Source: Acidobacteriota bacterium (GTDB lineage Bacteria > Acidobacteriota > Vicinamibacteria > Vicinamibacterales > UBA823). Taken from it: a stretch of 64,000 bases of DNA. A program made the translations under genes and the position numbers. The stretch is taken from the NCBI GenBank assembly GCA_002730525.1, contig PCAK01000026.1:1-64000 (forward strand), read 5' to 3'. Under the pieces are notes generated by a model. That model ran no database searches and was not told where the DNA came from. It saw nothing but the letters and a program-made list of their open reading frames with translations. Shown piece after piece: positions 24,400 to 40,605 of the stretch (position 1 is the first letter of the stretch; each line of letters starts with the position of its first letter).

Positions 24400-25307
24400 G
24401 TCCTGCCACGGTCGAGTGGGTCCTCGTGGCGCTCGCTGGGCTTGTCGTCGGCAGCTTCCTCAACGTCTGCATCCACCGGCTGCCTCTCGGCGGCTCCGTG
24501 GCCTCGCCGCCATCTCAGTGTCCCCGGTGCGGCGCCGGCATCCGGTGGTACGACAACGTCCCGGTGCTCAGCTATCTGCTGCTGCGCGGCCGGTGTCGAG
24601 GCTGTCGCGTGGCGATCTCGCCGGTCTACCCGTTGGTGGAAACCGTAGTGGCCGGACTGTTCGTGCTGCACTGGGTGGTGTTCGGATGGCAGCCGCTCCT
24701 GGCCGTCCGCCTCGTGTTTGCCTGCGCGCTCGTCGTCCTGTTCATGATCGATCTCAGGCACCACATCTTGCCCAACCGCATCACGCTACCGGGGATCGGC
24801 GTCGGGTTGGCGTGCAGCCTGGTGGCGCCACCAGGCTGGCTGAGCGCCACGATCGGTGCCGTGGCCGGCGGTGGGGTCCTCTTCGTCATCGCGGAAAGCT
24901 ACTATCGGATCCGTGGCGAAGAAGGGCTGGGGATGGGCGACGTGAAGATGCTGGCGATGATCGGCGCGTTTCTTGGGTGGCAGCAGATGATCGTGACGCT
25001 GATCCTCTCCTCGGTGGCCGGATCGGTCGTGGGTATCGGGCTGCTGGCCTCCGGCCGAGGGGGCCTGAAGTACGCGCTTCCGTTTGGCACCTTTCTCGCA
25101 CTCGGCGCGTTGGCGGCAAGCCTCGTCGGCGATCTGCTCTGGTGGTGGTACGTGTCGTTCTACCTGCTTGGCCTGACGGCCATCGTCCTGCTTGGCCTGA
25201 CGGCCATCGTCGGCGCGTTGATCGCCATCCTCGTCTTCGCGGTGCTGCGTCTTCGCGGTGCTGCGCTTCGGCGCCGCCGCGCGCAAGGCGAGCAGAGGCG
25301 CGCGTGA
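24396..25307 (+). CDS. pilD: Prepilin peptidase / N-methyltransferase
   Basis: This 303-residue A24 aspartyl peptidase has the N-terminal zinc motif (C42PRC45 and C67RGC70), and the two catalytic aspartates are in MIDLRHHILPNRIT (D119) and GLGMGDVKML (D182). It cleaves type IV prepilins such as the product of 19703 and methylates the new N-terminus in the inner membrane. The start is GTG 24396, overlapping the TPR gene stop. Residues ~257-272 show an exact tandem repeat of LLGLTAIV. Confidence 0.93.
   Translation: MSPATVEWVLVALAGLVVGSFLNVCIHRLPLGGSVASPPSQCPRCGAGIRWYDNVPVLSYLLLRGRCRGCRVAISPVYPLVETVVAGLFVLHWVVFGWQPLLAVRLVFACALVVLFMIDLRHHILPNRITLPGIGVGLACSLVAPPGWLSATIGAVAGGGVLFVIAESYYRIRGEEGLGMGDVKMLAMIGAFLGWQQMIVTLILSSVAGSVVGIGLLASGRGGLKYALPFGTFLALGALAASLVGDLLWWWYVSFYLLGLTAIVLLGLTAIVGALIAILVFAVLRLRGAALRRRRAQGEQRRA
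25164..25211 (+). repeat. Exact 24-base tandem duplication inside pilD
   Basis: Bases 25164-25187 are repeated without change at 25188-25211, duplicating eight residues (LLGLTAIV) in the last membrane helix. The frame is kept. A second near-duplicate (CTTCGCGGTGCTGCG, twice) follows at about 25236-25266. Confidence 0.9.
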
Positions 25308-34750: not shown

Positions 34751-34779
34751 TTGCGAACTATGGGCTTATTTGGTACGAT
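34751..34779 (+). promoter_or_regulatory. Promoter abutting the S41 protease gene start
   Basis: TTGCGA (34751-34756), 17 bases, then TACGAT (34774-34779). The ATG at 34787 follows the -10 box after seven bases, again implying a leaderless mRNA. Confidence 0.55.
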
Positions 34780-34786
34780 CCGTCAT

Positions 34787-36406
34787 ATGCGTGCAGCCCA
34801 GTCTCTCTCTGCGGCGGTGATGGTGGTCGTGGTGTCGGCGCTCGTGGGTGGCCTGTTCGGCGGCCGGGCGCTGGCGACACAGGACCCCGTCGCCGAGCGA
34901 TACAAGGTGTTCTCGAATGCGCTGGCGGCGATCGAGGCCAACTACGTCGAGGAGGTCGATACCGACCGCCTGGTCTACGGCGCGATCAACGGGATGCTGC
35001 AGACCCTCGACCCGCACTCCAGCTTCATGGACCCGCGCACCTACTCCCAGATGCGCGAACGGCAGGAAGGCCGCTACTACGGCCTCGGCATCACGATTCA
35101 GGTGCTCGATGGGGACATCACCGTCATGGCGCTCTTCGATGGGTCGCCGGCCTACCTGGAGGGGGTCCGGCGGGGCGATGTGATCGCGGAAATCGAGGGT
35201 GAATCTGCCGCGGGCTGGACCAGCGACCAGGCGGTGGCGCGGCTGCGCGGACCGAAAGGGTCGCCGGTCAACATCGCGATCCGCCGTCAGGGGTACGACG
35301 CGCTGATTCCGCTCGAGGTGACGCGTGACGAGATCAACATCCCGACGATCCTCGGGGCGTTCATGGTGAACGCGTCGACCGGCTACGTCCGGCTGAGGGA
35401 CTTCTCGGAAACGACCGATCACGATCTCGGACTGGCGTTGGAGGATCTGGCCGGCCAGGGGATGCAGCAACTGCTGCTGGATCTCCGGGACAATCCCGGC
35501 GGGCCGCTCGACCAGGCGATCCGCGTGGCCAACCGGTTCCTGCCGCGCGGCGACATGATCGTCTACACGCGCGGTCGGATTCCGAACTCCGATCAGGACT
35601 ACCACGCGAGCGAGGAGAGCGACTTCACCGATCTCCCGCTGGTAGTCCTGGTGAATCGGAACAGCGCGAGCGCGTCGGAGATCGTCGCCGGCGCCATCCA
35701 GGATCACGACCGCGGACTGATCGCCGGGGAGACGACGTTTGGCAAAGCCCTGGTGCAGTCGATCTACCGGGTGAGCGAGGGGGCCGGTCTGGCGTTGACT
35801 ACGGCGCGCTACTACACGCCGAGTGGTCGCCTCATCCAGCGCCCATGGGATGGCACGTTCGACGAGTACCTGACGTACTCGATGCGCGATCAGGAAGCCG
35901 ATCGTCAGCACTCGAGCGCCGATCTCAAGTACACCGACGCAGGCCGGCAGGTGTACAGCGGTGGCGGCATCGAGCCCGACGACTTCATGGCCGGCCCGGT
36001 CGAGGGCTTCGATCCGACGCCGATCGGTCGACGCCTCTTCGCGCGCCAGGCGTTCGCGCGCTACGCGCAGAAGTACTCGGCGAGCGGCGACACGCGCATC
36101 CGCGAACCAGGGCGCGATCTGGTGCTGGTGGACCGTGACTTCGAGATTACGGACGAGATCGTCGACGATTTCATGCAGTTCCTCGCCCAGGAGCGCCTGA
36201 CCATCGATGCCGGCGAACTCTCGGACGACGCACTGTTCGTGCGCGCGATGATCCGCTACTACATCGACCTCGATCTGTTCGGCGTGCTCGATGCTCGCCG
36301 GCACCTCGTCGAGGTGGATCCCCAGGCGATGTTCGCGCTGACGCTCTTCGGCAAGGCCGAGGCCCTCACGCGCCTGTCGCGGCCGGGGCAGCCAGTAGAG
36401 CCCTAG
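34787..36406 (+). CDS. S41-family C-terminal processing protease
   Basis: From ATG 34787 the product is 539 residues: an N-terminal signal/anchor (SLSAAVMVVVVSALVGGLFG), a PDZ domain (~75-170) and the tail-specific protease core. The catalytic serine is in NRNSASASEIVAGA (~296), with the lysine in TFGKALVQ (~319). The C-terminal ~180 residues extend past the usual core. It would trim or degrade envelope proteins. The start at 34787 is chosen because an earlier ATG at 34760 would fall inside the inferred promoter. Confidence 0.9.
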   Translation: MRAAQSLSAAVMVVVVSALVGGLFGGRALATQDPVAERYKVFSNALAAIEANYVEEVDTDRLVYGAINGMLQTLDPHSSFMDPRTYSQMRERQEGRYYGLGITIQVLDGDITVMALFDGSPAYLEGVRRGDVIAEIEGESAAGWTSDQAVARLRGPKGSPVNIAIRRQGYDALIPLEVTRDEINIPTILGAFMVNASTGYVRLRDFSETTDHDLGLALEDLAGQGMQQLLLDLRDNPGGPLDQAIRVANRFLPRGDMIVYTRGRIPNSDQDYHASEESDFTDLPLVVLVNRNSASASEIVAGAIQDHDRGLIAGETTFGKALVQSIYRVSEGAGLALTTARYYTPSGRLIQRPWDGTFDEYLTYSMRDQEADRQHSSADLKYTDAGRQVYSGGGIEPDDFMAGPVEGFDPTPIGRRLFARQAFARYAQKYSASGDTRIREPGRDLVLVDRDFEITDEIVDDFMQFLAQERLTIDAGELSDDALFVRAMIRYYIDLDLFGVLDARRHLVEVDPQAMFALTLFGKAEALTRLSRPGQPVEP

Positions 36407-36455
36407 CAGCCCGAAATCCCTCGGCGAATACCACATTTTGTGGCGCACTTTCATC

Positions 36456-36485
36456 TTGCCCCAAGGGCTAGGCCCTTGGTACACT
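36456..36485 (+). promoter_or_regulatory. smc promoter with operator-like palindrome in the spacer
   Basis: TTGCCC (36456-36461) and TACACT (36480-36485) are spaced by 18 bases. The spacer is almost filled by the perfect palindrome CCAAGGGC-TAG-GCCCTTGG (36461-36479). A dimeric repressor could bind here; it could instead be a terminator stem for the gene before, but no T-run follows. Confidence 0.5.
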
Positions 36486-36492
36486 GCGGTCG

Positions 36493-36590
36493 TTCCCGGG
36501 GGCGTCGGGTGACTGCCCCGGTGAACGCGGGAATGGCGCGTGGCGGGCCGCAGGGTGCCCTGACGGCTCCCTGAGACGGGCCTGAGCCCT
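36493..36590 (+). ncRNA. Candidate structured leader RNA or small RNA
   Basis: Starting near the predicted transcription start, TTCCCG (36493-36498) pairs with CGGGAA (36528-36533), and GGGGC (36499-36503) pairs with GCCCC (36515-36519). Farther on, GGGC-CTGA-GCCC is followed by TTTT at about 36589-36593, which could be a weak terminator. No match to SRP RNA, RNase P or tmRNA core motifs was seen. Confidence 0.3.
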
Positions 36591-36738
36591 TTTGAACCCT
36601 CACTGGCGGCCCCCGCCCTCGTACTGGCCGCTGGAGGGTGCTTACGGCGGTGTGTGAGCGCTCCCAGCCGCTCGATTGCCGAGGTGTCATGACCTTCGAT
36701 CGCGCGGCTGTTCGTTCGTACTGTTGAGGGCAGCATCG

Positions 36739-39700
36739 ATGCAACTGCAGCACCTCGAAATCTCAGGCTTCAAGAGCTTCCCCGACCGGTCCCAGCTGGA
36801 GTTCGACCACGGCGTAACCGCGATTGTCGGACCCAACGGCTGTGGCAAGAGCAACGTGGTCGATGCCATCACCTGGGTGCTGGGGGAGCAGAGCGCGAAG
36901 AGCCTCCGGGGCGACCGGATGGAGGACGTGATCTTCAGCGGCAGCGACGGGCGCAAACCGACGGGCTCCGCCGAGGTCAAGATAATGCTTCGCGGTGTCA
37001 CGGTCGCCCGGATCGGCAGCACGAATGGGCGCCATGGAGCGAGCAGGCGCGGCACTTCGAATGGCAACGGTCACGGCAATGGCAACGGTAGCGGTGCCGC
37101 CGAGCCCGCCGTCCCGGCCGACGCCGTGCTCGAAGAGGTGGCCGTCGAACTCGCGATCGATCCCGGATCCGACGAGGAACTCGAGACCGACGAGGCACCG
37201 CCCCGGGTCGCGCGCGACGTGGAAGTGTCTCGCCGCCTGTATCGATCGGGTGAGAGCGAGTATCTGATCGACGGCAAGGTCTGCCGGCTTCGCGACGTCC
37301 AGGATCTGCTGATGGATGCCGGCGTCGGCATCAAAGCCTACGCCGTCATCGAGCAAGGGAAGATCGGCCAGATTCTCAGCGCTCGGCCGAATGATCGGCG
37401 CCAGTTGATCGAGGAGGCGGCGGGTGTCACGAAGTACAAGACCCGCCGCCACGCCGCCGAACTGAAGCTCGAGGCGGCCCGGCAGAACCTGACACGGGTC
37501 GACGACATCGTCTACGAGGTCGACAAGCAGCGCAATGCCCTGAAGCGCCAGTCGGCGAAGGCCCGCCGCTATCAGCGGCTGCGCGACGAGTTGCGCCGGT
37601 GGGAGAAGGTCTCGTTCGCGCGCCGCCATCACACACTCGCGCTGGCCATCGATACCGCCGACGCTCAACTCGCCGGAGTTCGCGCCACCGAGCAGGGCAC
37701 GGCCGCGCGGCTGGCCGAGGTCGAGGCGCGCCAGGAACGCTTGTGGATCGAGTTGACCGAGGCCGAGACCCGCGCGACCTCGACTCGCGACGCCGCGCAT
37801 GGCCGTGAACTCGAGATCGATCGACGCCAGCAACAGTTGAAGTTCGATGGCCACCAGGTCGCCGAGTTGGGCACGCTCGCCGAGCAGATTCGCGCCGAAT
37901 TGAAGACCCTCGACGCGCGCCGTGGGCCGGCGCGCGAAGCGATTGCCCGGGGGCGCGCCGAGGCTGGCGGAGCCGCGACCGAGCGGGGCCAGGCGGAGCA
38001 CACGATGGCGTCCGAGGAGACCCGGTATGCGGCGGCGCGTCGCGACGTCGAAGGGCTCGAGGGCGATGTCGAGGCGGCGCGAAGTGAAGTGTTCGCCGCG
38101 ATCAATGCGGCGACTGCGCTTCGCCACGCCGCCGAGCACGCGACCAGCGCGGGTGAGCGAGTCTCGGCCGAGTTGGCCAAGCTCGACATCGAGTTCTCCG
38201 AACTCGACGTCGAACAGGCTCATCTCGAGACCTCTCGACGGTCGGCGTCGACCGACCGCGAGGCCTCACGGTCCGAGTTGGCTCGGCTGAGCGAGACCCA
38301 CACCGTGTGCCGGCAGGAGCTGGAAGGTCTACAGCGCGATCAGGCGGGTGTCGCGGAGTCGGCCCGTGTGGGGGAGCGGGAGTTGGCCGGCCTGGCCGCG
38401 CGGCTGAAGTCCCTGGAGGAACTGGAGGCGGCTCGCGCCGGGTACGGCGACGCTGCGCGGCTCCTGCTGGCCGAGTCGAACGGGAACATCAGTCACATGG
38501 GCTCCGTGGCGGATCATCTCGAGGTCGACGCGCGCTACGAGCTGGCCGTCGAGGCGTGTCTGGGCGACTTGCTGCAGCGCGTCGTGGTTCCGCGTCACGA
38601 GCACGCCGCGGAAGGGCTCAGGTTCGTTCGGGACCGCGACGCCGGACGGTGCGGATTCCTGGTGGTCGAGCGCAACGGCGGCGGCGGCGATGCGCCGGTC
38701 GCCGAGGTGGAGCCGGACGCGCCCGCGGGGTTGGTGCCGGTGGCATCGATCGTTCGGGTCAGTGGACCGTACGCGCCGGCCGTCCGTGCGGCTATCGGGC
38801 AGGCCTATGTCGCGACCTCGCTAGACCAGGCATCCCAGGTAGCGCCGACGGTGCTTGGGCCGATCGCGACCCTTGCCGGGGAGGTCGTGCGCGGCGCTCA
38901 CCTCGTGTCTGGCGGCGTCAAGGCCGAGGCTCGAGGAATCCTTGCCACCAAACGAGAGATCAAGTCCCTGCGTGAGGCCATTACCGAGAAGCGGGCTCAG
39001 GTCGAGTCTTCCGCCCGGAGGCTGGATGAACTGGCGCGGGCCGTCGAGGCCGCGATTGGGGTACTGGACGCGCTCGGCGAAGAACGGCAGGCTCACGAGA
39101 AGGTGGGGTTGGAGCTGGACCTCCGGCTGGCGGCCCTCGGAGACGACGCCACACGGCTCACCAGGAAGCGCGAGTTGCTCGACGCCGAGCGGCGGCGAGC
39201 CGACGAAGAATGCAAGGTCCTGGAGGCGCGCCACGAGGAGGCACATGCCTCCATCGCGAAGATCGATGGCGAGCAACATGCCGCCGACGGACGGCTCGCT
39301 GGAGCGCAGCGTCAGCTCTTCGACACGCGATCGTCGATCGAATCGATGGGGCAGCGCTTCGCCGACGCCAAGGCCTTGCACGCGCGCCTTGTCGAGCGCG
39401 CCGCGTCTGTCGCGGCCGACGTGAAGCGTCTCGAGGATGCGTCGGCGGAGTTGGAGGCGAGGGTCACGAGCCGCCAGGACGACCTCTCGCACGCCGACAG
39501 CCGACGCCAGTCGCTGCAGGTCCAGATCGAAGAGTCCAGGCAGCGGCTCGACCGAGACGTTGGCGAACTGGAGACCCTTCGGGCCGATGTGCGGTCGGCC
39601 GACGAGCGGCTGACGGAGTTGCGGGGCCGGGTCGAGGGTGAGGACGCCACGGTGCGGTCGGTGCGCACCGCGCTCGAGGAGGTCAGGGCCAGGGTTGGCC

Positions 39701-40605
39701 GTCTCGAAGTCGCGCAGGCGACCGCGCAGGCGGACCTCACGCACCTGGCGGCGGCGTGCCTGGAGGCCGTGCAGGCGGATCTGCCGTCGGTGATCGCGGA
39801 GGTGGAGCAACTCGAACGTGACGGCAAGATCGAGATCGACGCGGCCCTCGGTTCCGCGCTGGCCTCTCAGGACGCTGACGCCGATGCTGATGCTGATGCT
39901 GATACCGAAGCCGAAGCTTCCGCCGATGGCGACGCGCAGCCCGCGGAGCCGCCCGCCGGTCCGTCTTCGCCGGACGACGTCATCGCCGAGTTGAAGGCGA
40001 AGATCGAGCGCCTGGGCGCCGTCAACATGATGGCGATCGAGCAGTTCGACGAGTTGGACAGCCGCTATGCGTATCTGACGACGCAGCGAAAGGATCTGCT
40101 CGATTCGATCGCAGCGACGACCGAGGCGATCCGGCGGATCAACAAGACGACGGTCGAGCGGTTCCGCACCGCGTTCGACGCCATCAATACGCACTACCAG
40201 AAGATGTTCTCCACGCTGTTCGGCGGCGGCCAGGCGGGGCTGGTGTTGCTCGATGAGGATGACCTCCTCGAAAGCGGCATCGACATCATCGCCCAGCCTC
40301 CGGGCAAGCGCCTTCAGAGCGTGCAGTTGCTCTCGGGCGGCGAGAAAGCACTCTCGGCGATGGCGCTCATGTTTGCGATCTTCAAGTACAAGCCGAGTCC
40401 GTTCTGTCTGCTCGACGAAATTGATGCGCCGCTCGACGATATCAACATCGGCCGGTTCGTGGAGATGCTTCGTGGCATGCTCGACGAGACGCAGTTCGTG
40501 CTCATCACGCACAACCGCAGGACGATGGAGATCGCGGACCGACTCTACGGCGTCACGATGGAAGAGCCCGGCGTGTCGAAACTGATCTCCGTCCAGCTCC
40601 ACTGA
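36739..40605 (+). CDS. smc: Chromosome segregation ATPase SMC
   Basis: This 1288-residue condensin subunit has Walker A GPNGCGKS (31-38), long coiled coils, a hinge (~575-735), and the C-terminal signature LLSGGEKALSAMALMFAI with Walker B CLLDEIDAPLDD. It folds and separates sister chromosomes with ScpA/ScpB. Two unusual insertions occur: a Gly/Asn/Ser-rich then acidic stretch at ~88-158 in the ATPase head before VSRRLYRSGESEYLI, and a (Asp-Ala)n run at ~1045-1055 before the C-terminal head. ATG 36739 gives the conserved MQLQHLEISGFKSF start. Confidence 0.95.
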   Translation: MQLQHLEISGFKSFPDRSQLEFDHGVTAIVGPNGCGKSNVVDAITWVLGEQSAKSLRGDRMEDVIFSGSDGRKPTGSAEVKIMLRGVTVARIGSTNGRHGASRRGTSNGNGHGNGNGSGAAEPAVPADAVLEEVAVELAIDPGSDEELETDEAPPRVARDVEVSRRLYRSGESEYLIDGKVCRLRDVQDLLMDAGVGIKAYAVIEQGKIGQILSARPNDRRQLIEEAAGVTKYKTRRHAAELKLEAARQNLTRVDDIVYEVDKQRNALKRQSAKARRYQRLRDELRRWEKVSFARRHHTLALAIDTADAQLAGVRATEQGTAARLAEVEARQERLWIELTEAETRATSTRDAAHGRELEIDRRQQQLKFDGHQVAELGTLAEQIRAELKTLDARRGPAREAIARGRAEAGGAATERGQAEHTMASEETRYAAARRDVEGLEGDVEAARSEVFAAINAATALRHAAEHATSAGERVSAELAKLDIEFSELDVEQAHLETSRRSASTDREASRSELARLSETHTVCRQELEGLQRDQAGVAESARVGERELAGLAARLKSLEELEAARAGYGDAARLLLAESNGNISHMGSVADHLEVDARYELAVEACLGDLLQRVVVPRHEHAAEGLRFVRDRDAGRCGFLVVERNGGGGDAPVAEVEPDAPAGLVPVASIVRVSGPYAPAVRAAIGQAYVATSLDQASQVAPTVLGPIATLAGEVVRGAHLVSGGVKAEARGILATKREIKSLREAITEKRAQVESSARRLDELARAVEAAIGVLDALGEERQAHEKVGLELDLRLAALGDDATRLTRKRELLDAERRRADEECKVLEARHEEAHASIAKIDGEQHAADGRLAGAQRQLFDTRSSIESMGQRFADAKALHARLVERAASVAADVKRLEDASAELEARVTSRQDDLSHADSRRQSLQVQIEESRQRLDRDVGELETLRADVRSADERLTELRGRVEGEDATVRSVRTALEEVRARVGRLEVAQATAQADLTHLAAACLEAVQADLPSVIAEVEQLERDGKIEIDAALGSALASQDADADADADADTEAEASADGDAQPAEPPAGPSSPDDVIAELKAKIERLGAVNMMAIEQFDELDSRYAYLTTQRKDLLDSIAATTEAIRRINKTTVERFRTAFDAINTHYQKMFSTLFGGGQAGLVLLDEDDLLESGIDIIAQPPGKRLQSVQLLSGGEKALSAMALMFAIFKYKPSPFCLLDEIDAPLDDINIGRFVEMLRGMLDETQFVLITHNRRTMEIADRLYGVTMEEPGVSKLISVQLH

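What the first reader, a model, noticed from the sequence alone, without database searches (positions are those of the whole stretch)
36431..36590. Palindrome inside the smc promoter and a structured leader behind it
A 19-base perfect palindrome fills the -35/-10 spacer of the smc promoter, a second small inverted repeat lies just upstream, and the predicted transcript begins with an 11-pair hairpin. This suggests repressor control, a small RNA, or both.
Basis: seen in the sequence. Interest (0 to 1): 0.5.

Follow-up and report, generated by a model that had tools for sequence, protein, structure and literature searches.

The report
DNA-precursor repressor sites controlling smc
The palindrome in front of this chromosome-condensing gene looks like half of a paired binding site for NrdR, the repressor that senses DNA building-block levels and is described as specific for ribonucleotide reductase, and such a pair stands in front of the same gene in many members of two bacterial phyla.

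Summary
The palindrome, the upstream inverted repeat and the +1 hairpin are all there. The perfect 19-bp symmetry itself is neither rare nor widely conserved. That is the geometry of tandem NrdR boxes. A matrix trained only on ribonucleotide-reductase promoters of the same order picks this site as the only tandem hit >=10 in the 64-kb window. Over 76 loci (830 kb), 46 of 47 hits >=12 lie within 700 nt upstream of smc. The pair also precedes smc in other Acidobacteriota (18 of 61) and in a Nitrospirota set (30 of 43), above a 99% shuffled null. NrdR is present with its DNA-reading residues. Papers I saw call NrdR reductase-specific. Box 2 is weak here, and a full reductase-trained model misses the smc sites, so binding needs testing. 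The +1 hairpin is not conserved; a different, covarying pair of mutually exclusive hairpins (36655-36710) before smc suggests a second, attenuation-like layer. A free small RNA is not supported.

The parts
36428..36443 (+). NrdR-like box 1 (ATACCACATTTTGTGG); conserved C36431 and G36440
   Evidence: 13.3 bits with the RNR-trained matrix; best single 16-mer in the window. Resembles box 1 of the own RNR promoter (TGACCACATCTTGCGT).
36459..36474 (+). NrdR-like box 2 (CCCCAAGGGCTAGGCC), core CAA-GGGC-TAG, C36462 and G36471, 31 bp after box 1; weak (1.0 bit)
   Evidence: CwA-N4-TwG at this offset from CTTGCC in 53 of 65 promoters at >=5 of 6 positions; C and G kept in 59 of 65.
   Evidence: exact; perfect symmetry kept only in sister genome G001 of nine aligned
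36456..36461 (+). -35-like element TTGCCC
   Evidence: CTTGCCCC invariant in the nine family members. In the 65 wider promoters CTTGCC was the search rule with one substitution allowed, so its conservation there is by construction.
36480..36485 (+). -10-like element TACACT, with conserved TTGG before it
   Evidence: CCTTGGTACACT invariant in the nine family members; TAnA[CT]T in the wider set is by the search rule
36655..36674 (+). first conserved leader hairpin, UGAGCG-CUCCCAGC-CGCUCG (antiterminator-like)
   Evidence: 128 of 144 possible pairs kept in 24 sequences; 0 of 2000 permutations reach this, maximum 124
36665..36710 (+). second conserved leader hairpin (arms 36665-36676 and 36699-36710), terminator-like in relatives; shares a strand with the first. 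The U-tract is degenerate in this genome.
   Evidence: 13 pairs, 9 with changes on both sides, inner pairs broken in 3-7 of 19 sequences; model R3, trained on it among others, hits 36653-36712 at E 6e-12
36689..36727 (+). possible 12-codon upstream ORF (MTFDRAAVRSYC) after GAGGTG, seen only in this family; doubtful
36739..40605 (+). smc, the controlled gene
   Evidence: TIGR02168 SMC_prok_B, 928 bits against a cut-off of 567; ORF

Best explanation
The smc promoter carries a tandem NrdR operator. NrdR (Zn ribbon plus ATP cone) forms a DNA-binding tetramer when loaded with dATP and ATP and needs two boxes about three helical turns apart. Here box 1 lies just upstream of the -35 and box 2 covers the end of the -35 and most of the spacer, so a bound tetramer would block RNA polymerase. 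Shown by sequence: the box pair, its spacing, its conservation before smc in two phyla, the same kind of box pair at the reductase gene of the same genome, and an intact nrdR. Inferred: that NrdR binds here, that it represses, and the dATP logic at this promoter. A second, independent layer is likely: two mutually exclusive leader hairpins just before smc, terminator-like in several relatives, that could attenuate transcription; their signal is unknown.
For: (1) In 65 smc promoters aligned on CTTGCC, CwA-N4-TwG peaks at two places: -25/-24 (59 of 65 at >=5 of 6 positions) and +7 (53 of 65); 51 of 65 have both. A lesser peak is at +13 (22 of 65); every other offset has at most 6. The boxes were not part of the selection rule. 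(2) A matrix from 44 boxes of 22 RNR promoters, no smc sequence used, places the best tandem of 700 nt at this offset in 61 of 65, and 61 of 93 distinct upstreams exceed the 99% shuffled null. (3) In the 64-kb window the smc site is the only tandem >=10. (4) In 76 loci (830,541 bp, 67 with an smc start) 47 hits reach 12 and 46 lie within 700 nt upstream of smc, in 46 loci. (5) Acidobacteriota outside the order: 18 of 61 above the 99% null. Nitrospirota set: 30 of 43; among its first 30, 26 pass against 0 of 30 control stretches in or beyond smc. (6) Spacings 31 and 32 lead a scan of 20-45 in both sets. (7) nrdR in 58 of 60 genomes of the relatives set and in 5 of 5 further genomes; own NrdR is TIGR00244 at 192 bits and has D15 and R17, the residues shown to set specificity (PMC9110341, passages). 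(8) In the solved S. coelicolor site the conserved G-C pairs are at 9 and 18, 40 and 49, i.e. 10-bp units 31 bp apart (PMC9110341); here 36431/36440 and 36462/36471. (9) Spacers of 15-16 bp are usual (PMC12051234, PMC12176259, passages).
Against: No binding or expression data exist. Box 2 of this genome scores only 1.0 bit and lacks the central AT; only the outer C/G, the CwA/TwG half-sites and the phase are kept. A 48-position model built from 20 RNR sites, spacer included, finds RNR promoters in 32 of 40 genomes but no smc promoter at E <= 1 (only 150 first-look candidates per genome were scored). 43 of 61 other Acidobacteriota and 13 of 43 of the Nitrospirota set do not pass the 99% null. 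22 of 87 distinct Acidobacteriota upstreams lack the promoter pattern; in some of these smc follows ctp directly. Sites in one order share ancestry, so counts are not independent events. RNR sites for the matrix were chosen with a recalled NrdR consensus. The null shuffles two-base blocks.
Confidence: 0.83

Rival explanations
1. A different, unknown dimeric regulator specific to smc uses a similar half-site and the same phase; NrdR is not involved.
For: Box 2 is far from the RNR boxes in its centre; model R2 of the smc promoter finds one strong site per genome, at smc, in 28 of 40 genomes, and otherwise only two weak hits (E 0.044 and 0.048) (136 candidates per genome scored); R1 misses smc.
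Against: An RNR-only matrix singles out the smc promoter; Nitrospirota smc sites contain near-perfect boxes such as CCACAATATATTGTGG; nrdR is present in 58 of 60 and 5 of 5 genomes. I recall no other regulator with two such palindromes 31-32 bp apart (recalled, not searched).
Confidence: 0.12
2. The 19-bp palindrome CCAAGG-N7-CCTTGG is itself the operator of a repressor sitting in the spacer.
For: CCAAGG/CCTTGG or one-mismatch forms persist in the family.
Against: The left arm is mostly not kept outside the family, whereas CwA-N4-TwG is; CCTTGG is explained by the extended -10 TTGnTAnACT; no other copy within 2 mismatches in the genome; such palindromes are common by chance.
Confidence: 0.04
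3. Only promoter and leader RNA matter: the conserved blocks are core promoter and an attenuator, and the box-like pattern is a by-product.
For: -35 and -10 are invariant in the family; the leader hairpins covary.
Against: Box 1 lies wholly upstream of the -35 and is conserved; lineages with CTTGCC only 38-59 nt before smc and no hairpin still have both boxes; Nitrospirota with another promoter sequence have them too.
Confidence: 0.05
4. A small RNA is made from this promoter and ends at the terminator-like hairpin.
For: CTTGCC to the CCCAGCCGCT motif is about 80-240 nt; U-runs follow the hairpin in several relatives.
Against: No Rfam match; the middle of the leader is poorly conserved; strong R3 hits are at smc only. 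The short product of attenuation would look the same.
Confidence: 0.08

Closest known systems
Tandem NrdR boxes of ribonucleotide reductase operons (S. coelicolor nrdRJ; PMC9110341, PMC12051234)
   Same: Two palindromic boxes with conserved C and G 10 bp apart, 31-32 bp start to start, at the promoter; nrdR in the genome with D15/R17.
   Different: Target is smc, not a reductase; box 2 sits in the -35/-10 spacer and often has a GC-rich centre and low score.
NrdR and topA in Pseudomonas aeruginosa (PMC4409342)
   Same: A proposed non-reductase, chromosome-related NrdR target.
   Different: topA has a single box and its direct control is called questionable (PMC12051234, passage); smc has a conserved pair in two phyla.
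Terminator/antiterminator attenuators
   Same: Two mutually exclusive covarying hairpins before the start codon, U-tract in several relatives.
   Different: No known ligand or factor, no Rfam family, U-tract degenerate in this genome.

Membership tests
NrdR operator (tandem NrdR boxes) | Two palindromic boxes, each with conserved C and G 10 bp apart | tested here: met
   C36431/G36440 and C36462/G36471; C/G kept in 61 of 65 (box 1, at either of two offsets) and 59 of 65 (box 2)
NrdR operator (tandem NrdR boxes) | Integer helical turns between boxes (15-16 bp spacer) | tested here: met
   31 bp start to start in the window, 31 or 32 in relatives; spacing scan
NrdR operator (tandem NrdR boxes) | Match to NrdR boxes of the same organism group over the whole 16 bp | tested here: inconclusive
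   Box 1 13.3 bits, box 2 1.0 bit; tandem is top of the window; model R1 with spacer does not find it
NrdR operator (tandem NrdR boxes) | Overlap with or adjacency to the RNA polymerase site | tested here: met
   Boxes flank and overlap the conserved -35; promoter inferred from conservation, not mapped
NrdR operator (tandem NrdR boxes) | nrdR gene with specificity residues in the genome | tested here: met
NrdR operator (tandem NrdR boxes) | Located before a ribonucleotide reductase operon, as in the well-supported cases | tested here: not met
   Gene is smc; the reductase has its own pair elsewhere. This is the novel part rather than a structural requirement.
NrdR operator (tandem NrdR boxes) | dATP/ATP-dependent binding of NrdR | not testable with these tools
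   needs MST, EMSA or footprinting
Transcription attenuator | Mutually exclusive hairpins supported by covariation | tested here: met
Transcription attenuator | Terminator hairpin followed by a U-tract | tested here: inconclusive
   U-runs in L043, L062, L068, L078, L116, L143; in the window GUUCGUUCG; no terminator found by scan
Known Rfam RNA | Match to a covariance model at gathering score | tested here: not met

The most novel reading that the evidence does not exclude
NrdR is not a reductase-only repressor: in at least Acidobacteriota and Nitrospirota it also controls smc, so one dATP sensor sets both the supply of DNA precursors and the supply of condensin. In Vicinamibacterales a previously undescribed smc leader RNA with a terminator/antiterminator switch adds a second control.
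Probability: 0.6. Interest if true: 0.85.

Novelty: new variant of a known kind. Interest (0 to 1): 0.75.

Why it matters
NrdR is described as specific for ribonucleotide reductase (PMC9110341), and its one proposed chromosome-related target that I found, topA, is doubted because it has a single box (PMC12051234). A conserved two-box NrdR site at smc in two phyla would give a well-founded non-reductase target and a direct regulatory wire from the dNTP pool to chromosome organisation. It makes the question of how condensin supply is matched to replication testable in simple promoter assays.

Tried and rejected
The exact palindrome as an operator with other genomic copies: none within 2 mismatches. 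The +1 hairpin as a conserved RNA: no common fold. Known RNA families: none at gathering; Scr1601 on the minus strand at 24.2 bits against a gathering score of 100 is taken as chance. The upstream ORF MTFDRAAVRSYC as a conserved leader peptide: its start codon is absent in the leaders outside the family that I aligned, so the hairpin explains the conservation better. The promoter as a general one shared with other genes: R2 finds only smc at E < 1e-5. nrdR autoregulation in this genome: no tandem >= 8 in 3.5 kb around nrdR. A literature link between NrdR and smc: searches NrdR+regulon+smc (2 listed), NrdR+chromosome segregation (20 of 21 listed), NrdR+Acidobacteria, NrdR+condensin, NrdR+RegPrecise terms, smc promoter phrases (none, 20 of 765 listed, mostly smooth muscle cells) gave no title or abstract start that makes it. 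Apart from PMC5343134 (passages: 'smc' does not occur) these hits were seen as listings only.

Rows dropped: 4 of 65 promoter rows (L011, L059, L062, L077; taken as chance pattern matches) before A3; 8 of 30 RNR loci without a clear pair before the matrix, the 30 being those returned as loci from 57 genomes with a match; L172 and L175 of the 22 dropped before A2 but left in the matrix. Leaders L006, L039, L040, L060 were left out of A1 and; L023, L024, L063, L095, L112 were left out of A1 but used. In one search, 61 of 101 matching genomes outside the order were examined, the 21 returned as loci and 40 chosen for spread over families. In one search, 43 of 46 genomes with a match were examined.

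Full report
What is there. The finding lies in the 332-nt gap between an S41 peptidase gene (34751-36406) and smc (ATG 36739; SMC_prok_B). The palindrome 36461-36479, the upstream inverted repeat 36431-36443 and the predicted +1 hairpin are all present. On its own, a perfect inverted repeat of this size is common: 56 in the window, 17-37 in 8 shuffles.

Conservation. A DNA search of 60 genomes showed two conserved blocks in the gap: window 36428-36507 and about 36647-36720. Alignment of nine family members shows CTTGCCCC and CCTTGGTACACT invariant and an upstream ATACtATATtTAGTGG block, while the perfect palindrome is kept only in the sister genome. Ninety-three distinct smc upstreams were collected, 87 from Acidobacteriota and 6 from records titled Nitrospiria/Nitrospirae or Nitrospinota; 65 have a CTTGCC...TAnA[CT]T promoter within 450 nt, one substitution allowed in CTTGCC, of which four are probably chance matches.

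The boxes. Counting CwA-N4-TwG at every offset from CTTGCC gives sharp peaks at -25/-24 and +7 (59 and 53 of 65 at >=5 of 6 positions), a lesser one at +13 (22 of 65), and at most 6 of 65 elsewhere. The distance, 31 or 32 bp, is that of tandem NrdR boxes: 16-bp boxes with 15-16 bp spacers (PMC12051234 and PMC12176259, passages). In the solved S. coelicolor complex the conserved G-C pairs sit at 9 and 18, 40 and 49 (PMC9110341, passages). The window has C36431/G36440 and C36462/G36471.

Test with an independent matrix. Ribonucleotide reductase promoters of the same order carry clear tandem boxes; the own one is TGACCACATCTTGCGT..N16..ACCCCATATGTTGTAG. A symmetric matrix from 44 boxes of 22 such promoters (of 30 loci looked at) was scanned over smc upstreams. 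In 61 of 65 the best tandem is at the promoter offset; 61 of 93 exceed the 99% and 69 of 93 the 95% shuffled null (the shuffle permutes two-base blocks). In the window the smc site is the only tandem >= 10 (14.3; box 1 13.3, box 2 1.0), and box 1 is the best single box. Across 76 loci and 830,541 bp, 67 of them with an smc start, 47 hits reach 12; 46 lie within 700 nt upstream of smc, in 46 loci, and one does not (L133:10110).

Breadth. In Acidobacteriota outside the order 18 of 61 smc upstreams exceed the 99% null and 21 the 95%. In the phylum set drawn for the genomes of L132 (titled Nitrospirae) and L140 (titled Nitrospinota; both handles draw the same genomes, so I take them as one phylum), 30 of 43 exceed the 99% null and 37 the 95%, several with near-perfect boxes followed by a likely -35/-10 pair. 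Among the first 30 of these, 26 pass, against 0 of 30 control stretches of 500 nt in or beyond smc. In a scan of spacings 20-45, the number of upstreams above the null is 18 and 12 of 43 at 31 and 32 bp (next best 10 at 29, 9 at 36, 8 at 25) and 36 and 21 of 87 Acidobacteriota upstreams (next best 16 at 38, from the +13 pattern, and 6 at 21). NrdR is found in 58 of 60 genomes of the relatives set and in 5 of 5 of the further genomes. The own NrdR reads MKCPFCGHLGDKVVDSREG.. (GTG start) with D15 and R17, which set DNA specificity in S. coelicolor NrdR (PMC9110341, passages).

Against. A 48-position model from 20 RNR sites with their spacers finds RNR promoters in 32 of 40 genomes but no smc promoter at E <= 1 (150 first-look candidates scored per genome). 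The smc sites are thus weaker and differ in the spacer; box 2 often has a GC-rich centre. This could mean lower affinity and earlier release than for reductase, or, as a rival, a related but different regulator. Counts within one order share ancestry. 43 of 61 and 13 of 43 of the wider upstreams show no pair above the 99% null, and 22 of 87 Acidobacteriota upstreams lack the promoter pattern.

Leader. The +1 hairpin has no common fold in the six family members folded; window and sister share one stem in 60-nt folds. Nearer to smc, 19 aligned leaders share a hairpin with 13 predicted pairs, 9 of them with changes on both sides, though inner pairs are broken in 3-7 sequences; in several relatives it is followed by a U-run. 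Just before it, a 6-nt arm (such as UGAGCG or GAAGCG) pairs with CGCUCG or CGCUUC, the strand that also opens the second hairpin: 128 of 144 pairs are kept in 24 sequences and none of 2000 permutations reaches that, the best being 124 (permutation ignores relatedness). A model of the element finds smc leaders at E < 1e-5 in 14 of 40 genomes and nothing else at that level among the 137 candidates scored per genome; most of these 14 were in its training set or close to it. The other 13 hits lie between 0.001 and 0.09, and one of them is also at smc. Rfam has no match. This looks like an attenuation switch of unknown signal. In the present family the U-tract is degenerate, so its mode here is open.

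Reading. Most likely NrdR, loaded with dATP and ATP, occupies both boxes and blocks the smc promoter when DNA precursors are in excess, in step with reductase. NrdR is described as RNR-specific (PMC9110341, abstract as shown) and a proposed topA target is doubted for having one box (PMC12051234, passage), so a conserved pair at smc is unexpected. My searches found no earlier report of NrdR at smc; Rodionov and Gelfand 2005 is not held and could not be checked.

Noticed in passing
L316:1494-1540, L317:1474-1520: Very strong tandem NrdR boxes (34.4 and 38.4) upstream of a small hydrophobic ORF (MSSDRILLVLIVVVSV..., about 119 aa, no Pfam or NCBIfam match) and divergent from a large ORF in two genomes of the same family: another possible non-reductase NrdR target.
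   Followed up: partly
L321:133-148: A near-perfect single NrdR box (ACACAAGATATTGTGG, 23.0 bits) without a good partner at 31/32 bp in genome G010.
   Followed up: no
36689-36727: Possible 12-codon ORF MTFDRAAVRSYC after a GAGGTG, ending 11 nt before smc; open in family members with ATG or GTG starts (ATT in G003), start not found in the leaders outside the family.
   Followed up: partly
24758-24773: Second-best single NrdR-like 16-mer of the window (GCACCACATCTTGCCC, 12.7 bits), no tandem partner.
   Followed up: no
smc promoters of Vicinamibacterales, offset +13 from CTTGCC: A third CwA-N4-TwG (often CTAGGCCTTG) in 22 of 65 promoters at >=5 of 6, 37-38 bp from box 1; it overlaps the conserved TTG before the -10.
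   Followed up: partly
L152, L154, L157-L159, L162, L165, L168, L170 and others: Many RNR promoters of the order share CCTAA(A) in the spacer between the two NrdR boxes (alignment A2), an unexplained conserved piece.
   Followed up: no
L021, L023, L068, L078, L116, L143 leaders: A further shared 5' leader piece around CAGGGGCCA and GGTGT in one group of lineages, possibly another hairpin.
   Followed up: no
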